Origin: Planctomycetota bacterium
GTDB taxonomy: Bacteria > Planctomycetota > Planctomycetia > Gemmatales > Gemmataceae
NCBI GenBank assembly: GCA_021781415.1
Contig: JAJXWW010000034.1
Coordinates: forward strand, 1 to 64,000
Reading direction: 5' to 3'
Length of the DNA: 64,000 nucleotides
In this document: piece by piece, positions 10,672-53,582 of the stretch
How the letters are laid out: every line of letters begins with the position of its first letter
Position numbering within the stretch: the stretch's first letter is position 1
Made by a program: the position numbers and the translations under genes
Notes under the pieces: model-generated
Seen by the model: the letters and a program-made list of their open reading frames with translations, nothing else
Databases searched by the model: none
Told to the model about the DNA's origin: nothing

Positions 10672-11646
10672 ATGCCGTATCCGTTATTTGATCGTTCGCG
10701 CCTGCGGATTCAACCGCTGAGCGAGCGTCATCACGATCTCGATTTATCCGTCCTGCTGCCGCTCGATGCGCCGCTGCCGGATTTCACCCACGAATCGCTG
10801 CCCATTCTCGGTCGGCGACTCGTCGAAGCGCGGAGGCAAGGCAACGCTCGGATGCTGGTCATGGGAGCGCATGTGCTTCGCGCCGGCGTGTCGCGCTATC
10901 TCATCGACTTGATGGAACGCGGCCTGATCGACCACATTGCCATGAACGGCGCGGGGCCGATTCACGATTGGGAGTTTGCCCTCATCGGTGCCAGCACGGA
11001 GAGTGTGGCCCGCTATATCCGCACTGGCGAATTCGGCTTGTGGCGCGAGACGGGCCGTATGAACGACATCATCCGAGCCGGCGCGGAGCAGGGGCTAGGA
11101 TTGGGTGAGTCCATCGGTCGAGCGATCCTAGAAGAGAGGTTCCCCCACGCCGACATCAGCGTCTTGGCTGCCGGGGTTCGTCTCGGCGTTCCGATTACGG
11201 TGCATCCCGGCATCGGCTACGACATTTTACACGAGCATCCCAACTGCGACGGCGCGGCGCTCGGCGAGACCGGCTACCGCGATTTCCTCGCCTTCGCCCA
11301 GACCGTGACGCGCTTGGAGAACGGTGTGATGCTCAACTTCGGTTCCGCCGTGATGGGGCCTGAGGTCTACCTCAAGGCGCTGGCGATGGCGCGCAACGTC
11401 GCCCATCAAGAGGGTCGTGTCATCCGAAATTTCACCACCGCTGTATTCGATCTCATTCCTTTGGATGGCGATACCCGACAGCAAGCGCCCAAAAGCGATC
11501 CGCGCTACTACTATCGACCGTGGAAGACGATCTTGGTGCGAACCGTGGCCGACGGCGGCGAATCGTTTTATGTGCAAGGCGATCATCGCGTCACCGTCCC
11601 GCACGTTCATCGCGCCGCCCTGAACGCCGAGGGAGGCGCGGAATGA
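10672..11646 (+). CDS. Deoxyhypusine-synthase-like NAD-binding protein
   Basis: The 324-residue protein starts at the ATG at 10672 (MPYPLFDRS); an upstream in-frame ATG overlaps the kinase end. The stretch MGAHVLRAGVSRYLIDLMER followed by DHIAMNGAGPIHDWEFALIG is strikingly like the deoxyhypusine synthase core (family form: GAHVIK.GLS..LIDLMERG...HIA.NGAG.IHD.E.AL.G). The typical C-terminal SWGK segment with the catalytic lysine is not recognisable; the end instead reads YYYRPWKTILVRTVADGGE. Bacteria lack the eukaryotic target eIF5A, and bacterial relatives are known or suspected to act in polyamine or other NAD-dependent chemistry. It overlaps the downstream PfkB kinase gene by 4 bp, so the two probably share a pathway. 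Confidence 0.65.
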   Translation: MPYPLFDRSRLRIQPLSERHHDLDLSVLLPLDAPLPDFTHESLPILGRRLVEARRQGNARMLVMGAHVLRAGVSRYLIDLMERGLIDHIAMNGAGPIHDWEFALIGASTESVARYIRTGEFGLWRETGRMNDIIRAGAEQGLGLGESIGRAILEERFPHADISVLAAGVRLGVPITVHPGIGYDILHEHPNCDGAALGETGYRDFLAFAQTVTRLENGVMLNFGSAVMGPEVYLKALAMARNVAHQEGRVIRNFTTAVFDLIPLDGDTRQQAPKSDPRYYYRPWKTILVRTVADGGESFYVQGDHRVTVPHVHRAALNAEGGAE

Positions 11647-12710
11647 GCGCGACGTCTCCGTTGGACGCAGATCGCCTGGAAGCGATATTAACGGCTATTC
11701 CTCGTTTAACCATCGCCGTTGTCGGCGATCTGTTTCTCGACCGCTATCTCGATCTCGACGCCGAGCTTACGGAGCCGTCGCTGGAAACAGGGTTGGATGC
11801 CTATCAAGTAGTCGCGGTTCGGTCGTATCCCGGAGCGGCGGGAACCGTCGTCAATAACCTGGCGGCGCTGGGCGTGGGACGCATCTGTCCGTTGGCCGTG
11901 GTCGGCGACGATGGCGAGGGCTACGAGCTACGACAAGCCTTGGGGCGAATGCCCGCCGTCGATCCGCGCGGACTGATCGTCTCCGCCGACCGCCGCACGC
12001 CGACCTACACCAAGCCCATGCTGTGCGAGCAGGGCCGAGCGCCGCGCGAATTGAATCGTCTGGACATAAAAAACCGACGTCCCGTGCCGGAGCATTTGGA
12101 AGGTCAAATCGTCCGAGAATTGGGCGGATTGTGGCCCGAAGTCGATGCGCTGGTGGTGTTGGATCAGGTGAGCGAGAACGATTGCGGCGTGGTTACGGGG
12201 AAGGTGCGCGAGGCGCTGTCGAAGCTGGCGATGGGGGAACCGAGCAAGTTCGTCTTGGCCGATAGTCGGGAGCGCGTCGGCCTATTTCGCAATGTCTGCT
12301 TGAAACCGAATCGCCATGAAACGCTGCGTGCCGTAGGGCGAGACGATGGCGCGGGAGACGATGCGCTGACGCGCGCCGCCCATCAACTCGCGACAGCCGC
12401 CGGTCGATGGGTATTTTGCACGGATGGAGCGCGCGGAATTTTGTTGGCATCGCCCCAAGACAAGGAAAACGAGAATCGTCCTCGTATTTCCGCCTATCCG
12501 GTAAATGGTCCCATCGACATTGTGGGTGCGGGCGACAGCACCAGTGCGGCCATCGTTTGCGCGATGGCCGCGGGCGTCGGCGTGGAAGCGGCCGCGTCGT
12601 TCGGCAATCTCGTGGCCTCGATCACCATCCAGCAACTGGGAACCACCGGCACCGCCTCACCCGCGCAACTCCGCCAGCGTTTTCACTCCACCGGCGAACC
12701 GGCAGCGTAA
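11643..12710 (+). CDS. PfkB-family carbohydrate kinase (RfaE/HldE domain-1-like)
   Basis: The 355-residue ribokinase-fold protein starts with ATGA coupling to the upstream gene. N-terminal features are IAVVGDLFLDRY and SYPGAAGTVVNNLAALGV, the form seen in heptose-phosphate kinases of the RfaE/HldE type. The C-terminal signature PIDIVGAGDSTSAAIV contains the expected catalytic Asp in GAGD. It has no cytidylyltransferase domain. The last codons and the TAA stop lie inside a palindromic repeat unit that begins at 12696, so the C-terminus GEPAA is repeat-derived. The substrate is likely a sugar or sugar phosphate, unassigned. Confidence 0.82.
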   Translation: MSATSPLDADRLEAILTAIPRLTIAVVGDLFLDRYLDLDAELTEPSLETGLDAYQVVAVRSYPGAAGTVVNNLAALGVGRICPLAVVGDDGEGYELRQALGRMPAVDPRGLIVSADRRTPTYTKPMLCEQGRAPRELNRLDIKNRRPVPEHLEGQIVRELGGLWPEVDALVVLDQVSENDCGVVTGKVREALSKLAMGEPSKFVLADSRERVGLFRNVCLKPNRHETLRAVGRDDGAGDDALTRAAHQLATAAGRWVFCTDGARGILLASPQDKENENRPRISAYPVNGPIDIVGAGDSTSAAIVCAMAAGVGVEAAASFGNLVASITIQQLGTTGTASPAQLRQRFHSTGEPAA

Positions 12711-12823
12711 GCTGCCGGGTGGAGCAAATACCCCAGCAGCGCAGGCTGCCGGGTGGAGCAAATACCCCGGTAGCTCAGGCTGCCGGGTGGAGCAAAGAAC
12801 CCGGCAGCTTACGCTGCCGGTTC
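12696..12823. repeat. Palindromic repeat block, four hairpin units with outer inverted copies
   Basis: Four related units, each built on CCGGCAGC-GTAA-GCTGCCGG or a variant, are joined by GGAGCAAATACC or GGAGCAAAGA linkers. The first 25-bp unit (12696-12720) and the last (12799-12823) are exact reverse complements, so the whole block can fold on itself as well as into single hairpins. It lies between convergent genes (PfkB kinase and the C26-like protein) and could end transcription from both sides. The same 25-bp unit occurs six times at 33432-33646. Confidence 0.85.
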
Positions 12824-12829
12824 ACCTAA

Positions 12830-13540
12830 TTAGGCCGCGTGACATGCAACCGGCTCCTTGGCCCAGCGTTCGTGGCAGGCGTTGACCAACCCGCGGAACA
12901 ATTGAATGTCTAACCCCGACGCCGTGGCCGAAGCGGGATGCCACTGTACGCCCAAAGCAAACCAGTCGCCGTCCGCTTCGATGGCTTCGACCACGCCGTC
13001 CAAGGCTTGGGCGCACACCCGAAAGCCGCGCGCCACGCGCTGCACGGCCCGACGATGTTCGCTGTTGACAACAACCTCGCCCTCGCCGTATAAGTCCGCC
13101 AAAATCGTGCCCGAAAGGACATTGATGGCGTGACGCAGACCGCGCTCCGGGGGGTGGCGATGCTGCAACGCCTCCGGAAGATCGCGCGGCAGATCGAGGT
13201 AGACGGTCCCGCCGTGCGCAGTGTTCATCAGATGTAGGCCGCGATCGATTCCCAGAATGGGAAACTGATGATTGTTGCACCACAGACACAGTTCTTCGGC
13301 TTCGGCGGTGGGACGTTTGCCGTCGGCGTCGTGGCCGGACAGAACGACGCCGTGCAAACCGTCAAAAACCTCGTCCCACGAACGGTCGCCGACCTCGCCG
13401 ATAGCGACAGGCTCGGCATCGGCGGCGGTCAAGCAGGATGCGATGCCCGCCGGCCACAACCCGCAGCCGTGCCGCTCGTTGGCATAGACGTTATCGTGAC
13501 CAAAGATGCCCACGCGAATGGGCGGAACGCTACTCGACAT
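12830..13540 (-). CDS. Class I glutamine amidotransferase-like (peptidase C26) protein without catalytic Cys
   Basis: The 236-residue protein starts at 13540 behind an AGGAG site; upstream in-frame ATGs are not supported. The order of motifs follows PuuD-type gamma-glutamyl hydrolases: VGIFGHDNVYA, VVLSGHDAD, then ILGIDRGLHLMNTAHGGTVY, VNSEHRRAV, and GVQWHPA. In active members the nucleophile elbow reads GICRG; here codon 99 is GAT, giving Asp instead of Cys. The triad Glu that normally follows WHP is Ala. Two of three catalytic residues are therefore missing, so it is probably a non-hydrolytic homologue with a binding or regulatory role. Confidence 0.75.
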   Translation of the reverse strand: MSSSVPPIRVGIFGHDNVYANERHGCGLWPAGIASCLTAADAEPVAIGEVGDRSWDEVFDGLHGVVLSGHDADGKRPTAEAEELCLWCNNHQFPILGIDRGLHLMNTAHGGTVYLDLPRDLPEALQHRHPPERGLRHAINVLSGTILADLYGEGEVVVNSEHRRAVQRVARGFRVCAQALDGVVEAIEADGDWFALGVQWHPASATASGLDIQLFRGLVNACHERWAKEPVACHAA

Positions 13541-13949
13541 GGAGGACTCCTTTCCTCGGTAATGAAGTAGATCGATGAGCCAGTCATCCCTTCCCGGTTC
13601 AACCGACATTGTACTTATTTCCGACGTGGGAGCCAGCGCAAAATGCGCGAAAACGGGGCACAGCGATGGACGACGGCTATCGTCGGCGTTCTCCCATCGG
13701 GCTTCCAAGCAAGGAAAAGTCTCACTACGTATTCTGTTCTTGTCAGATATCTGGGAGCGAGAATCTTGGCAGACGGCCTCGATTCCATCCCGTCCTCGAC
13801 GAACGATCCACTTCCACCAGTGCTACGACAAAGACGGGACTGCGGCTAATTCGTACCATCAAAGATAGCTCGACCAGTTCCGTTCGCGGTCGTCGTAGAG
13901 CTTTTCCAACGAGCAGTGTACAAGGTCGGCAGTAAGGTGAGCGACACCC
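13541..13949. other. Intergenic region, no gene recognised
   Basis: This 409-bp gap lies between divergently transcribed genes. Short open frames occur on both strands but none shows protein-like composition, a good ribosome site and a plausible start together. It presumably carries the promoters of the C26-like gene and of the membrane protein at 13950. Confidence 0.5.
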
Positions 13950-14642
13950 ATGAGTAACACGAGGCAGCTCGCGGCTCGGTTGCAAGACGCCGCCGATCGG
14001 CACAATCGAGAGGTGAAACTTGAGGTGTGGGGCAAAGTCCTTCTCGGAGTCGGCTTCTCTTTCTTAGTCTTTGGATTCGTCTTCTGGTTTGGCTGGGTCG
14101 CCGCATGGATCCTCGGCCATCCGCTGGATCTCGAAGCCTGGCAATTCGGAGCGCTCGTGACGGGATTGTTTTTCATCGTGGCGACATGGTCGGCTTGGCA
14201 GCGCGTCGATCCCTTGTCCGGGTTGCAACCGCTCAGCGACGGACAAAGGTTGCTGACCCTCATCTCCCAGGCCACGCCCGGTTTGATCTATTTTAGCCCT
14301 CGCCATGCTTCCGCGGGTGCTGCCGTCGTCCTCCTTGGCGGGCCGCTCAACGTACTGGAAGGCCTGGGGATTTGGGTCTGTCGTCTTCGAGCCGATCCCG
14401 TTTTGATTGAAGAAGCGGCGCGGCTGCTCGCCGCTTGTCGCGAACCTTATCCCGTCGAGGAAGTCCGCGAACCGGCCGCGGCTCTGCTGCTTCTTCGCCT
14501 CAAGTTGATCAAAGCCGCTCCAAGCGGCGAGTCCGCCGTGGTTCTACTCACCGAGAAAGGCGAGAAAATGCTCCCGAGAAAGAAGGCGCATCGACGCAAA
14601 GAACCGAACGATCCGCGCGAGTTCCACGAGAACGAGGAATGA
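13950..14642 (+). CDS. Two-helix membrane protein of unknown function
   Basis: The 230-residue protein has a short polar start, then two hydrophobic segments at about residues 28-52 (VLLGVGFSFLVFGFVFWFGWV) and 64-83 (WQFGALVTGLFFIVATWSAW). The rest is soluble, with an Ala/Leu-rich helical section and a basic, charged tail (PRKKAHRRKEP). The C-terminal half looks like a winged-helix-type or all-alpha domain (LLLLRLKLIKAAPSGESAVVLLTEKG), with 'LTEKG' recalling wHTH wings, but this is weak. No neighbour suggests a function. Confidence 0.65.
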   Translation: MSNTRQLAARLQDAADRHNREVKLEVWGKVLLGVGFSFLVFGFVFWFGWVAAWILGHPLDLEAWQFGALVTGLFFIVATWSAWQRVDPLSGLQPLSDGQRLLTLISQATPGLIYFSPRHASAGAAVVLLGGPLNVLEGLGIWVCRLRADPVLIEEAARLLAACREPYPVEEVREPAAALLLLRLKLIKAAPSGESAVVLLTEKGEKMLPRKKAHRRKEPNDPREFHENEE

Positions 14643-49901: not shown

Positions 49902-50423
49902 ATGCAGAAACGTCCCAATGCTGTCACCTTCAAAGGCAACCCGCTCACCCTCGTGGGGCCACAACTGAAGGCCGGCGATAAAGCGCCAGGCTTCGCCTGC
50001 CTGAGCGGACTCGATGTCGTCGGACTCGACAAAACGCCCGCTAAAGCCCGGCTGTTCAGCGTCGTCCCGTCGTTGGACACGCCCGTGTGCAACCAACAAA
50101 CGCACAAATTCGACGAGGCTCTCGGCGCTTACAAGGACAAACTCGCCTGCTACACCATCAGCCTCGATCTCCCGTTCGCGCAGAAGCGATTCTGCACGGC
50201 GGAGAACATCACCAACATGCAGACGCTGTCGGACGTTCACAATCACTCGTTCGGGCAAAATTACGGTGTTCTCATCGAAGGACTACCGTTGGCCCTGCTG
50301 AGCCGAGCCGTGTTCGTGGTCGATAGAGACGGCGTAATCACCCATGCCGAGTATGTGCCGGAGGTCGGTTCTCATCCCAACTACGAATCCGCCTTGGCAG
50401 CCATCCAAGCCATCGCGGGCTAA
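49902..50423 (+). CDS. tpx: Thiol peroxidase (atypical 2-Cys peroxiredoxin)
   Basis: The 173-residue protein follows GAGAGGAACTCCC and matches Tpx: VTFKGNPLTLVG, KAPGFAC, PSLDTPVCNQQT with the peroxidatic Cys63, and QKRFCTAENI with the resolving Cys98, 35 residues later as usual. It reduces hydroperoxides using thioredoxin. Its stop is followed by a clear intrinsic hairpin at 50487-50515. It ordinarily uses Cys, in contrast to the TGA-containing peroxiredoxin 1.5 kb away. Confidence 0.94.
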   Translation: MQKRPNAVTFKGNPLTLVGPQLKAGDKAPGFACLSGLDVVGLDKTPAKARLFSVVPSLDTPVCNQQTHKFDEALGAYKDKLACYTISLDLPFAQKRFCTAENITNMQTLSDVHNHSFGQNYGVLIEGLPLALLSRAVFVVDRDGVITHAEYVPEVGSHPNYESALAAIQAIAG

Positions 50424-51879: not shown

Positions 51880-52449
51880 CTACTTATCCTTAAGGTTGGT
51901 CTTGATCCAGTCGAGGACTTCGCCGGCATTCTCGGGGGGGTTGACTTTGCGATAGATCTTGCGGACGACGCCGTCCTTGTCGATGATAAACGTCACGCGA
52001 TTGGAGAGGCCGCGTTCGGAGAGGACGCCGTAAGCCTTGGCCGTCTTTTTCTCGGCATCGGCTAATAAAGGATATGTCAGCCTTTCTTTGTCCGAAAATC
52101 GCTTTTGTGCTTCCAGTTTATCGACGCTGATGCCCAAGAGGACTGTGTTGGTTCGAGCAAACTGCTCGGCGTGGTCGCGATAGCCGCAGACCTCGATGGT
52201 TCAGCCCCCGGTCAATGCTTTGGGATAGAAGAACAAGACGACATTCTTTCCCTTGAGATCCTTTAGACTCAGTGTTTTGGCATCTTTCTTGTCCGGAAAA
52301 ACTCTGTCGATGTTGACGGCCGGTAGATTGAAGGACGGCGCGGGTTTCCCCTCTTCCACCTTTGCCGACTTCTCTTCGGCGAAACCGGGGACGGCCAAGC
52401 CGACTAGGCCGGCCAATCCGAGAATGCGGAGCAATCGCATGGCAAGCAT
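51880..52449 (-). CDS. Candidate selenocysteine peroxiredoxin (PrxQ/BCP-like) with in-frame TGA, exported
   Basis: The frame is continuous from ATG at 52449 to the stop at 51880 except for one TGA at 52201-52203. Read through, it is a 189-residue AhpC/TSA protein. A signal peptide (MLAMRLLRILGLAGL to GFAEE) leads, then GKPAPSFNLPAV, NVVLFFYPKALTGG, position 83 = TGA, TIEVCGYRDHAEQF, GISVDKLEAQKRFSD, YPLLADAEKKTAKAYGVL and RVTFIIDKDGVVRKIY. PrxQ/BCP enzymes have YPK...TPGC with the peroxidatic Cys at exactly this place and a resolving Cys five residues later, here Cys88. A SECIS-like hairpin follows the TGA. Insertion of Sec is inferred; a pseudogene is the alternative. Confidence 0.75.
52173..52192 (-). 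promoter_or_regulatory. SECIS-like hairpin just after the in-frame TGA
   Basis: On the transcript, GGUC, a bulged U, GCG, loop GCUAU, CGC and GACC form a 7-bp stem. The loop begins with G and lies 16 nt after the UGA. Bacterial SECIS elements, as described for E. coli fdhF and later surveys, have a stem with a bulged U on the 5' side, a G in the first positions of the apical loop, and a loop roughly 16-37 nt from the UGA. All three hold here. Confidence 0.6.
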
Positions 52450-52585
52450 CTCCTCGTGCGAAGGAATGGGGCGAGACTGTCGCTATTGTCAGCGCGGCGA
52501 GGGTAGAGGGCAAGAGGGACCTGCCCATCTCGTTCCCATCGACCCATTGAAGTTCGACGAAACAAGGACATCGAGTGGACGAGCT

Positions 52586-53401
52586 TTATCGACTTGTTTG
52601 CACTTCACGAAGTCGTTTTTCGAACCACTTCTGTTCCTCGGCGTTGAGCGGCGGTTTCAACGGTTTGCGGTAGTCGATGCTCCTTCCGTAGCGCGACAAT
52701 TCGTATACCGTGTCGATCAACGGTTGCAGATCGAGCGTGAGATCCGCATCCGGCGCTGCCAACGGAACGGGAACGCTCGGCAAGGGACGGTCGAAATAGG
52801 CGCGCCAAACCTGACAGCGAAGTCGTTGATCGGCCCGACCGACCAGAAGGGTGTACGGACTATTCGGCCACGGATCGCGCATCAACGGACGACGACCGCC
52901 GCGTAACAAATCGATCTCCACGAGATGCACGCCGCCCAACAGGGCGCTGTAACGTTTACTGTGATAGAGGTGCCAGCCCTCCGAGTTAAACGTCTTGTTC
53001 GACGGCGACAACACTTCGATGGTCGTCACCAATCGTTGCTCCGGACTGTCCTCGTAGATCTCAACGAAGCCTTCGCGGTGTTCCTCGGAGACGACGGCGT
53101 GAAGCGTCAGCGGTTCGCTTTCGGTCGGAGCCTCGATGACGGCCACGCCACCGGGCTTCTTCCTCGGTTTCTTGCCGCGATCCGAAGTCGTGATCTTCAC
53201 GTCCGGAACGAAGGGACGGTCGGACTTCTCGTTCGCTTCGACGAGGACGTGATAGGATCGCTCTCCGGCCCGAACGAAATAACGCTCTGGAGCCAACCGC
53301 GCCAGAGCGTGTTTGATCTCGATGATCAGATCGTTGTGGAAATCTTCCCACAGTCCGCAGGCTTCGATGTACGGGTCCATGCCGGGAAACGGTGATTTCA
53401 C
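52586..53401 (-). CDS. DUF4058 family protein
   Basis: The 271-residue protein starts at a GTG (KSPFPGMDPYIEACGLWEDF follows), because GGAGG lies 8 bp before it and SPFPGMDPY is the normal family beginning. The core has FHNDLIIEIKHALARLAPERYFVRAGER, the acidic strand VEIYEDSPEQRLVTTIEVLSPSNK, YHSKRYSALLGGVHLVEIDLLRGG, and a C-terminal LIDTVYELSRYGRSIDYRKPLKPPL. This is a fuller DUF4058 than the copy at 49077-49808. It is divergent from the DNA methyltransferase with 181 bp between them. Confidence 0.88.
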   Translation of the reverse strand: MKSPFPGMDPYIEACGLWEDFHNDLIIEIKHALARLAPERYFVRAGERSYHVLVEANEKSDRPFVPDVKITTSDRGKKPRKKPGGVAVIEAPTESEPLTLHAVVSEEHREGFVEIYEDSPEQRLVTTIEVLSPSNKTFNSEGWHLYHSKRYSALLGGVHLVEIDLLRGGRRPLMRDPWPNSPYTLLVGRADQRLRCQVWRAYFDRPLPSVPVPLAAPDADLTLDLQPLIDTVYELSRYGRSIDYRKPLKPPLNAEEQKWFEKRLREVQTSR

Positions 53402-53582
53402 GATGCGATCCTCCGAGCGGCGTAACTCTCGATGAGACGAAAACCCATTGTACCCTGCGCATTCAGTCCAGTCATGGCAACTTCGTCTTCGCGCCGGCGC
53501 AATCTCCGGTAACAATGTCTGTGCCGGTTTGGGATACGCGCGGAGAGCGTCCGTCGTTGAGACGAGATCAAGGAGGATCGAC

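What the first reader, a model, noticed from the sequence alone, without database searches (positions are those of the whole stretch)
51880..52449. Peroxiredoxin gene with a single in-frame TGA at the peroxidatic Cys position: likely selenoprotein
Two co-frame pieces (52204-52449 and 51880-52200) join into one complete PrxQ/BCP-like protein of 189 residues. The only interruption is a TGA exactly where YPK...GGC has its peroxidatic Cys, with a resolving Cys five residues later. Random nonsense mutation would rarely hit precisely the residue that selenium replaces in known selenoperoxiredoxins. The flanking sequence shows no decay.
Basis: partly seen in the sequence, partly recalled or inferred. 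Interest (0 to 1): 0.88.

Follow-up and report, generated by a model that had tools for sequence, protein, structure and literature searches.

The report
Selenium-containing peroxiredoxin from a planctomycete
A bacterial antioxidant gene that looks broken by a stop codon most likely uses that codon to place the rare selenium amino acid selenocysteine at its catalytic site; this is a convincing new example of a known kind of protein rather than a new system.

Summary
Window 52449-51880 (-) encodes one complete AhpC/TSA protein (PF00578, E=5e-37) interrupted only by TGA at 52203-52201. That TGA lies exactly at the peroxidatic-Cys position of a PrxQ/Bcp-like peroxiredoxin (P76-xxx-T80-xx-U83, Arg151), with Cys88 five residues on.

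The same genome has tRNA-Sec (UCA anticodon), selA, selB and selD. A same-genus genome has a 92%-identical gene with the identical TGA. Of 70 related loci, 26 have TGA and 44 have Cys at this one codon; nothing else occurs there. Downstream of the TGA the gene evolves as protein (pN 0.06, pS 0.33). In another family member the TGA-bearing gene sits directly upstream of selB-selA. Right after the TGA lie RNA hairpins, enriched in TGA genes against synonymous-codon controls (19/24 versus 5/39), that fit a SECIS.

So it is very probably a genuine selenoprotein. The family is known: Sec-containing Bcp-type peroxiredoxins (COG1225, TxxU). What is added is the Gemmatales lineage, its patchy Sec/Cys exchange, and a SECIS-like hairpin with unusually long spacing. 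Selenium incorporation itself was not shown.

The parts
51880..52440 (-). Coding sequence of the Sec-containing peroxiredoxin, probable start ATG 52440 (alternative ATG 52449), stop TAG 51882-51880
   Evidence: Read-through translation; Pfam AhpC-TSA 127 bits; downstream half under purifying selection against the same-genus orthologue
52201..52203 (-). In-frame TGA read as selenocysteine (residue 83 of the 189-aa numbering), peroxidatic position
   Evidence: the same codon is TGA in 26 and TGC/TGT in 44 of 70 homologous loci; invariant U/C column in a 41-sequence alignment
52186..52188 (-). Cys88 codon, probable resolving Cys (U-x4-C)
   Evidence: Cys at +5 in 16 of 24 Sec forms and 41 of 44 Cys forms, at +4 in 7 and 3
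52154..52168 (-). Hairpin CGAGCA-GUU-UGCUCG, nt 36-50 counted from the T of TGA; candidate SECIS apical stem-loop
   Evidence: -7.6 kcal/mol, 0 of 200 shuffles as stable; its 13-nt core is identical in 9 TGA-bearing homologues, its outer pair is C-G, U-A or A-U in 8 of 9
52173..52192 (-). Hairpin GGUC-(bulged U)-GCG-GCUAU-CGC-GACC, nt 12-31; candidate part of, or alternative, SECIS
   Evidence: z -1.6; upper stem largely kept in the TGA homologues, lower stem not; a similar small stem also occurs in some Cys forms
52378..52440 (-). N-terminal signal-peptide-like segment MRLLRILGLAGLVGLAVPGFA|EE, suggesting export
   Evidence: Read by eye from the translation; low model confidence for residues 1-30 fits a cleaved segment; not tested further
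52450..52455 (-). GAGGAG, Shine-Dalgarno-like, 9 nt upstream of ATG 52440
   Evidence: Read directly from the sequence; kept in the same-genus orthologue

Best explanation
The gene encodes a selenoprotein: an exported (inferred) thioredoxin-fold peroxiredoxin of the PrxQ/Bcp type. The genome's tRNA-Sec, charged by SelA with selenium supplied by SelD, is delivered by SelB to the UGA at codon 83, guided by a stem-loop just 3' of that UGA. In the mature enzyme Sec83, activated by the PxxxTxxU loop and Arg151, would attack H2O2 or alkyl hydroperoxides. The resulting selenenic acid would be resolved by Cys88 as a selenenylsulfide and recycled by a thioredoxin-like reductant. Shown here: frame, family, active-site residues, Sec machinery, Sec/Cys exchange and selection past the TGA. 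Inferred: actual Sec insertion, which hairpin SelB binds, export, and peroxidase activity.
For: Single-domain protein across the TGA; AlphaFold model with mean pLDDT 89 and confident core, matching solved peroxiredoxins including Bcp structures. P76, T80, C/U83 and R151 are invariant in 41 homologues. Own genome: tRNA-Sec 74 bits (cut-off 47) with anticodon TCA, selB 398 bits and selA 582 bits on one contig, selD 356 bits with its own in-frame TGA in CAGUAGK. Same-genus orthologue with the same TGA, 92% identical. Site codon TGA in 26, TGC in 34, TGT in 10 loci. At least 13 Sec/Cys switches on the tree, 7 of them forced by well-supported branches. Downstream pN 0.063, pS 0.333; zero synonymous changes in the first 17 codons after TGA. 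In genome G006 the TGA-bearing gene is directly followed by selB and selA on the same strand. Hairpin beyond synonymous-codon expectation in 19 of 24 Sec but 5 of 39 Cys forms.
Against: No direct evidence of Sec in the protein. The strongest hairpin has its loop about 38-40 nt past the UGA, longer than the 16-37 nt that I recall (from memory, not checked) for the standard bacterial SECIS model. No Rfam family matches the region. The Sec-versus-Cys contrast in hairpins is not significant when only independent pairs on supported branches count (median p 0.25). The same-genus genome G002 shows no tRNA-Sec over the cut-off and no selA, although it has selB whose contig ends where selA would begin.
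Confidence: 0.95

Rival explanations
1. Nonsense-mutated pseudogene: the TGA is a true stop and the gene is decaying.
For: A stop codon interrupts the frame.
Against: The TGA is shared with a 92%-identical orthologue in another genome and with many others at the same codon. The 106 codons after it show pN 0.063 against pS 0.333. There is no other stop or frameshift.
Confidence: 0.02
2. Sequencing or assembly error turning TGC/TGT into TGA.
For: The source is a draft metagenome assembly of 230 contigs.
Against: The same TGA occurs in an independent assembly (ZJ7.bin48, L103) that differs by about 9% at DNA level around it, and in 24 further loci, most from other genera.
Confidence: 0.01
3. UGA is read through with another amino acid (near-cognate tRNA), or the two halves are made separately by termination and restart (TTG at 52137), without selenium.
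For: A restart codon exists downstream.
Against: Either would replace or bypass the catalytic residue itself. The codon exchanges only with Cys. A dedicated Sec machinery is present and adjoins the gene in G006.
Confidence: 0.02

Closest known systems
Sec-containing peroxiredoxin, COG1225 (Bcp), TxxU motif (PMC9312934, PMC13188914; 43 sequences in the Sargasso Sea set, PMC1088965)
   Same: Bcp/PrxQ-type AhpC-TSA domain, Sec at the peroxidatic position, PxxxTxxU motif, many Cys homologues
   Different: Planctomycete (Gemmatales) branch with a signal-peptide-like N-terminus; below the NCBIfam cut-off for thiol peroxidase Bcp (107.6 of 140 bits)
PrxU of Eubacterium acidaminophilum (Sohling et al. 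2001, cited in PMC9312934 and PMC13188914; NCBIfam peroxi_PrxU NF040737)
   Same: Experimentally known Sec-peroxiredoxin of the same superfamily
   Different: Only 61.7 bits against a cut-off of 270, so not that subfamily
Cys-type PrxQ/Bcp, for example Sulfolobus Bcp1 (PDB 3drn)
   Same: Fold and peroxidatic loop; best PDB match by sequence
   Different: Cys instead of Sec at the catalytic site
Planctomycete selenoproteins reported in PMC4807772 (strains P1 and P2; full Sec genes also in Gemmata obscuriglobus and Isosphaera pallida)
   Same: Same phylum, Sec machinery present
   Different: The main text names fdhA and fmdB, not a peroxiredoxin; its list S9 could not be read here and might include one

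Membership tests
Bacterial selenoprotein gene | In-frame UGA aligned with a conserved redox Cys of homologues | tested here: met
   26 TGA, 44 TGC/TGT at the codon in 70 loci
Bacterial selenoprotein gene | Sec-decoding machinery (tRNA-Sec, SelA, SelB, SelD) in the genome | tested here: met
Bacterial selenoprotein gene | Bacterial SECIS stem-loop immediately 3' of the UGA with G in a small apical loop | tested here: inconclusive
   Conserved hairpins with GU loop found and enriched over synonymous controls, but spacing of the best one is long, two candidates compete, and no SelB binding was tested
Bacterial selenoprotein gene | Selenium present in the protein | not testable with these tools
   Needs mass spectrometry or 75Se labelling
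Peroxiredoxin (PF00578), PrxQ/Bcp type | AhpC/TSA domain with PxxxT(S)xxC/U and catalytic Arg | tested here: met
   127 bits; P76, T80, C/U83, R151 invariant; fold match
Peroxiredoxin (PF00578), PrxQ/Bcp type | Resolving Cys five residues after the peroxidatic residue | tested here: met
   Cys88
NCBIfam equivalog thioredoxin-dependent thiol peroxidase Bcp (NF006960) | Score over the curated cut-off of 140 bits | tested here: not met
   107.6 bits: best family, but below the cut-off, so Bcp-like and not filed as that equivalog

The most novel reading that the evidence does not exclude
In Gemmatales this peroxiredoxin was ancestrally selenium-containing and has repeatedly reverted to Cys, leaving decayed SECIS stems (for example L027, Cys, keeps the EQFA peptide but breaks two pairs that its same-genus Sec sister L028 keeps). 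Many of the genes share a SECIS class whose loop lies about 40 nt past the UGA. Earlier work listed 5 Cys-to-Sec and no Sec-to-Cys conversions for peroxiredoxin (PMC1794560, Table 1).
Probability: 0.4. Interest if true: 0.5.

Novelty: new member of a known kind. Interest (0 to 1): 0.38.

Why it matters
Standard annotation would split or truncate this gene, so an antioxidant enzyme would be missed in a large group of environmental planctomycetes. The group also offers close Sec/Cys sister pairs (same genus, for example L027/L028, L093/L043, L064/L066) in which gain or loss of selenocysteine and of its RNA signal can be studied almost codon by codon.

Tried and rejected
Rfam found no SECIS family in the region. 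A simple Fisher test on hairpins of 5 bp or more was weak (p 0.02) and was replaced by synonymous-codon randomisation, with a hairpin score chosen after seeing the first results; the sharper contrast is not phylogenetically independent. G002's apparent lack of selA and tRNA-Sec was considered as evidence against decoding, but its selB contig ends where selA would follow, so an assembly gap is the simpler reading. Other TGA-joined frame pairs in the window (59 mechanical, 26 after an overlap filter) were read by eye; apart from this gene they looked like noise or two separate genes; they were not scanned with Pfam. Papers: no text naming a planctomycete Sec-peroxiredoxin was found in the held library.

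Full report
Observation. The minus strand from 52449 to 51880 holds one reading frame interrupted only by TGA at 52203-52201. Read through, it is a 189-residue AhpC/TSA protein (PF00578, E=5e-37; Redoxin E=2e-25). The better-placed start is ATG 52440, 9 nt after GAGGAG.

Family and active site. The best solved relative by sequence is Bcp1 of Sulfolobus (3drn). The AlphaFold model (41 sequences, mean pLDDT 89, pTM 0.82) matches peroxiredoxins throughout the PDB, including Bcp structures. In 41 homologues P76, T80, C/U83 and R151 are invariant: the peroxiredoxin catalytic set. Cys88 is in the resolving position of PrxQ. Among curated NCBIfam models the best is thiol peroxidase Bcp, but below its cut-off (107.6 of 140 bits), while PrxU scores 61.7 of 270. 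So it is Bcp/PrxQ-like, on its own branch.

Machinery. The genome in which the window lies (6.47 Mb, 230 contigs) has a tRNA-Sec at 74.1 bits against a cut-off of 47, confirmed by ARAGORN with anticodon TCA. It has selB (398 bits with both parts), selA (582 bits, same contig) and selD (356 bits). selD itself carries an in-frame TGA in a CAGUAGK motif.

Relatives. In 59 related genomes and 102 genomes of the order I collected 70 loci and read the codon at the site: TGC 34, TGT 10, TGA 26 (two of the 26, L101 and L102, belong to other peroxiredoxin lineages). A same-genus genome (G002; the identical gene is in MAG ZJ7.bin48, L103) has a 92%-identical protein with the same TGA, in largely conserved gene order. 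Between the two, upstream codons have pS 0.23 and pN 0.01, downstream codons pS 0.33 and pN 0.06, so the part after the TGA is maintained as protein. On a maximum-likelihood tree made without the site, Sec and Cys interchange at least 13 times, 7 of them required by well-supported branches.

Genomic linkage. In G006 the TGA-bearing orthologue (C81:10738-11235) is followed on the same strand by selB (11316-13193) and selA (13254-14609). All TGA-bearing relatives tested for SelB have it over the cut-off. G002 is the one TGA-bearing genome without a selA match; it has no tRNA-Sec over the cut-off, and G006 has only one weak tRNA match (51.7 bits) there. In G002 only 884 nt remain on the contig beyond the end of selB, while in the window's genome selA lies about 920 nt beyond selB, so a contig break explains the missing selA.

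RNA signal. Directly after the TGA the transcript folds into two hairpins: nt 12-31 (a bulged U, loop GCUAU) and nt 36-50 (CGAGCA-GUU-UGCUCG, 0 of 200 shuffles as stable). In nine TGA homologues from several genera the 13 nt GAGCAGTTTGCTC are identical, while the peptide EQFA could be coded many ways; codon usage in those genes would give this choice in about 0.9% of cases each. The outer pair is C-G, U-A or A-U in eight of nine. The Cys gene L027 encodes the same EQFA but with two pairs broken, whereas its same-genus Sec sister L028 keeps all. Other TGA groups have different hairpins with GU in the loop: UUUCAGCG-GUCU-UGCUGAAA and (C)UCAGCC-AGUU-GGCUGA(G). Against randomised synonymous codons, 19 of 24 Sec genes but 5 of 39 Cys genes have a hairpin beyond the 5% level (Mann-Whitney p 4e-6). 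This is not corrected for relatedness; on independent supported pairs the hairpin goes with Sec in about 3 of 6, never the other way, and does not differ in the rest, too few to be significant. In the two same-genus sequences the first 17 codons after the TGA have no synonymous change (11.7 sites; about 4 would be expected at the downstream rate). Rfam has no match. I treat the SECIS as likely but not mapped.

Mechanism. Most likely Sec is inserted at codon 83 and acts as the peroxidatic residue, resolved by Cys88 and recycled by a thioredoxin-type reductant. The N-terminus looks like a signal peptide, which would place the enzyme outside the cytoplasm; this is by eye only. These steps follow from established peroxiredoxin and selenoprotein biochemistry and were not tested.

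Known context. Sec-containing peroxiredoxin of COG1225 (Bcp) with TxxU is a listed selenoprotein family (PMC9312934; PMC13188914; 43 genes in PMC1088965; 91 under the name peroxiredoxin in PMC5029168). Planctomycetes with Sec machinery and selenoproteins have been reported (PMC4807772), including complete Sec genes in Gemmata obscuriglobus; no peroxiredoxin is named in its main text, and its supplement could not be read. The finding is therefore a new, well-supported member of a known kind. The less ordinary parts are the density of Sec/Cys exchange within one order, with apparent SECIS relics in Cys genes, and the long spacing of the candidate SECIS loop.

Noticed in passing
L100:664-2178 (own genome contig C90, selD): selD of the same genome has one in-frame TGA in CAGUAGK, so SelD is probably a selenoprotein too.
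   Followed up: partly
L097 (G006 C81:8000-16500): The TGA-bearing peroxiredoxin gene lies directly upstream of selB and selA on the same strand, an apparent selenium operon.
   Followed up: partly
L101 (G026 C1) and L102 (G048 C87): Two peroxiredoxins of other lineages (FPKAFTGG-TGA-TKEC and FPLAFTPV-TGA-SREL) also have TGA at the catalytic Cys, the second AhpE-like.
   Followed up: no
L044 (G048 C65): A TGA-bearing homologue with no Cys at +4 or +5 (U-TIEAIGF), possibly a one-Sec peroxiredoxin without the usual resolving Cys.
   Followed up: no
window 52518-53425: A DUF4058 gene (52586-53515) just upstream is largely missing from the otherwise collinear same-genus contig L103 (about 158 nt in place of 908): recent gain or loss.
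   Followed up: partly
window 49902-50423: A Cys-type thiol peroxidase (Tpx, NF001808 178 bits) is encoded about 1.5 kb away on the other strand.
   Followed up: partly
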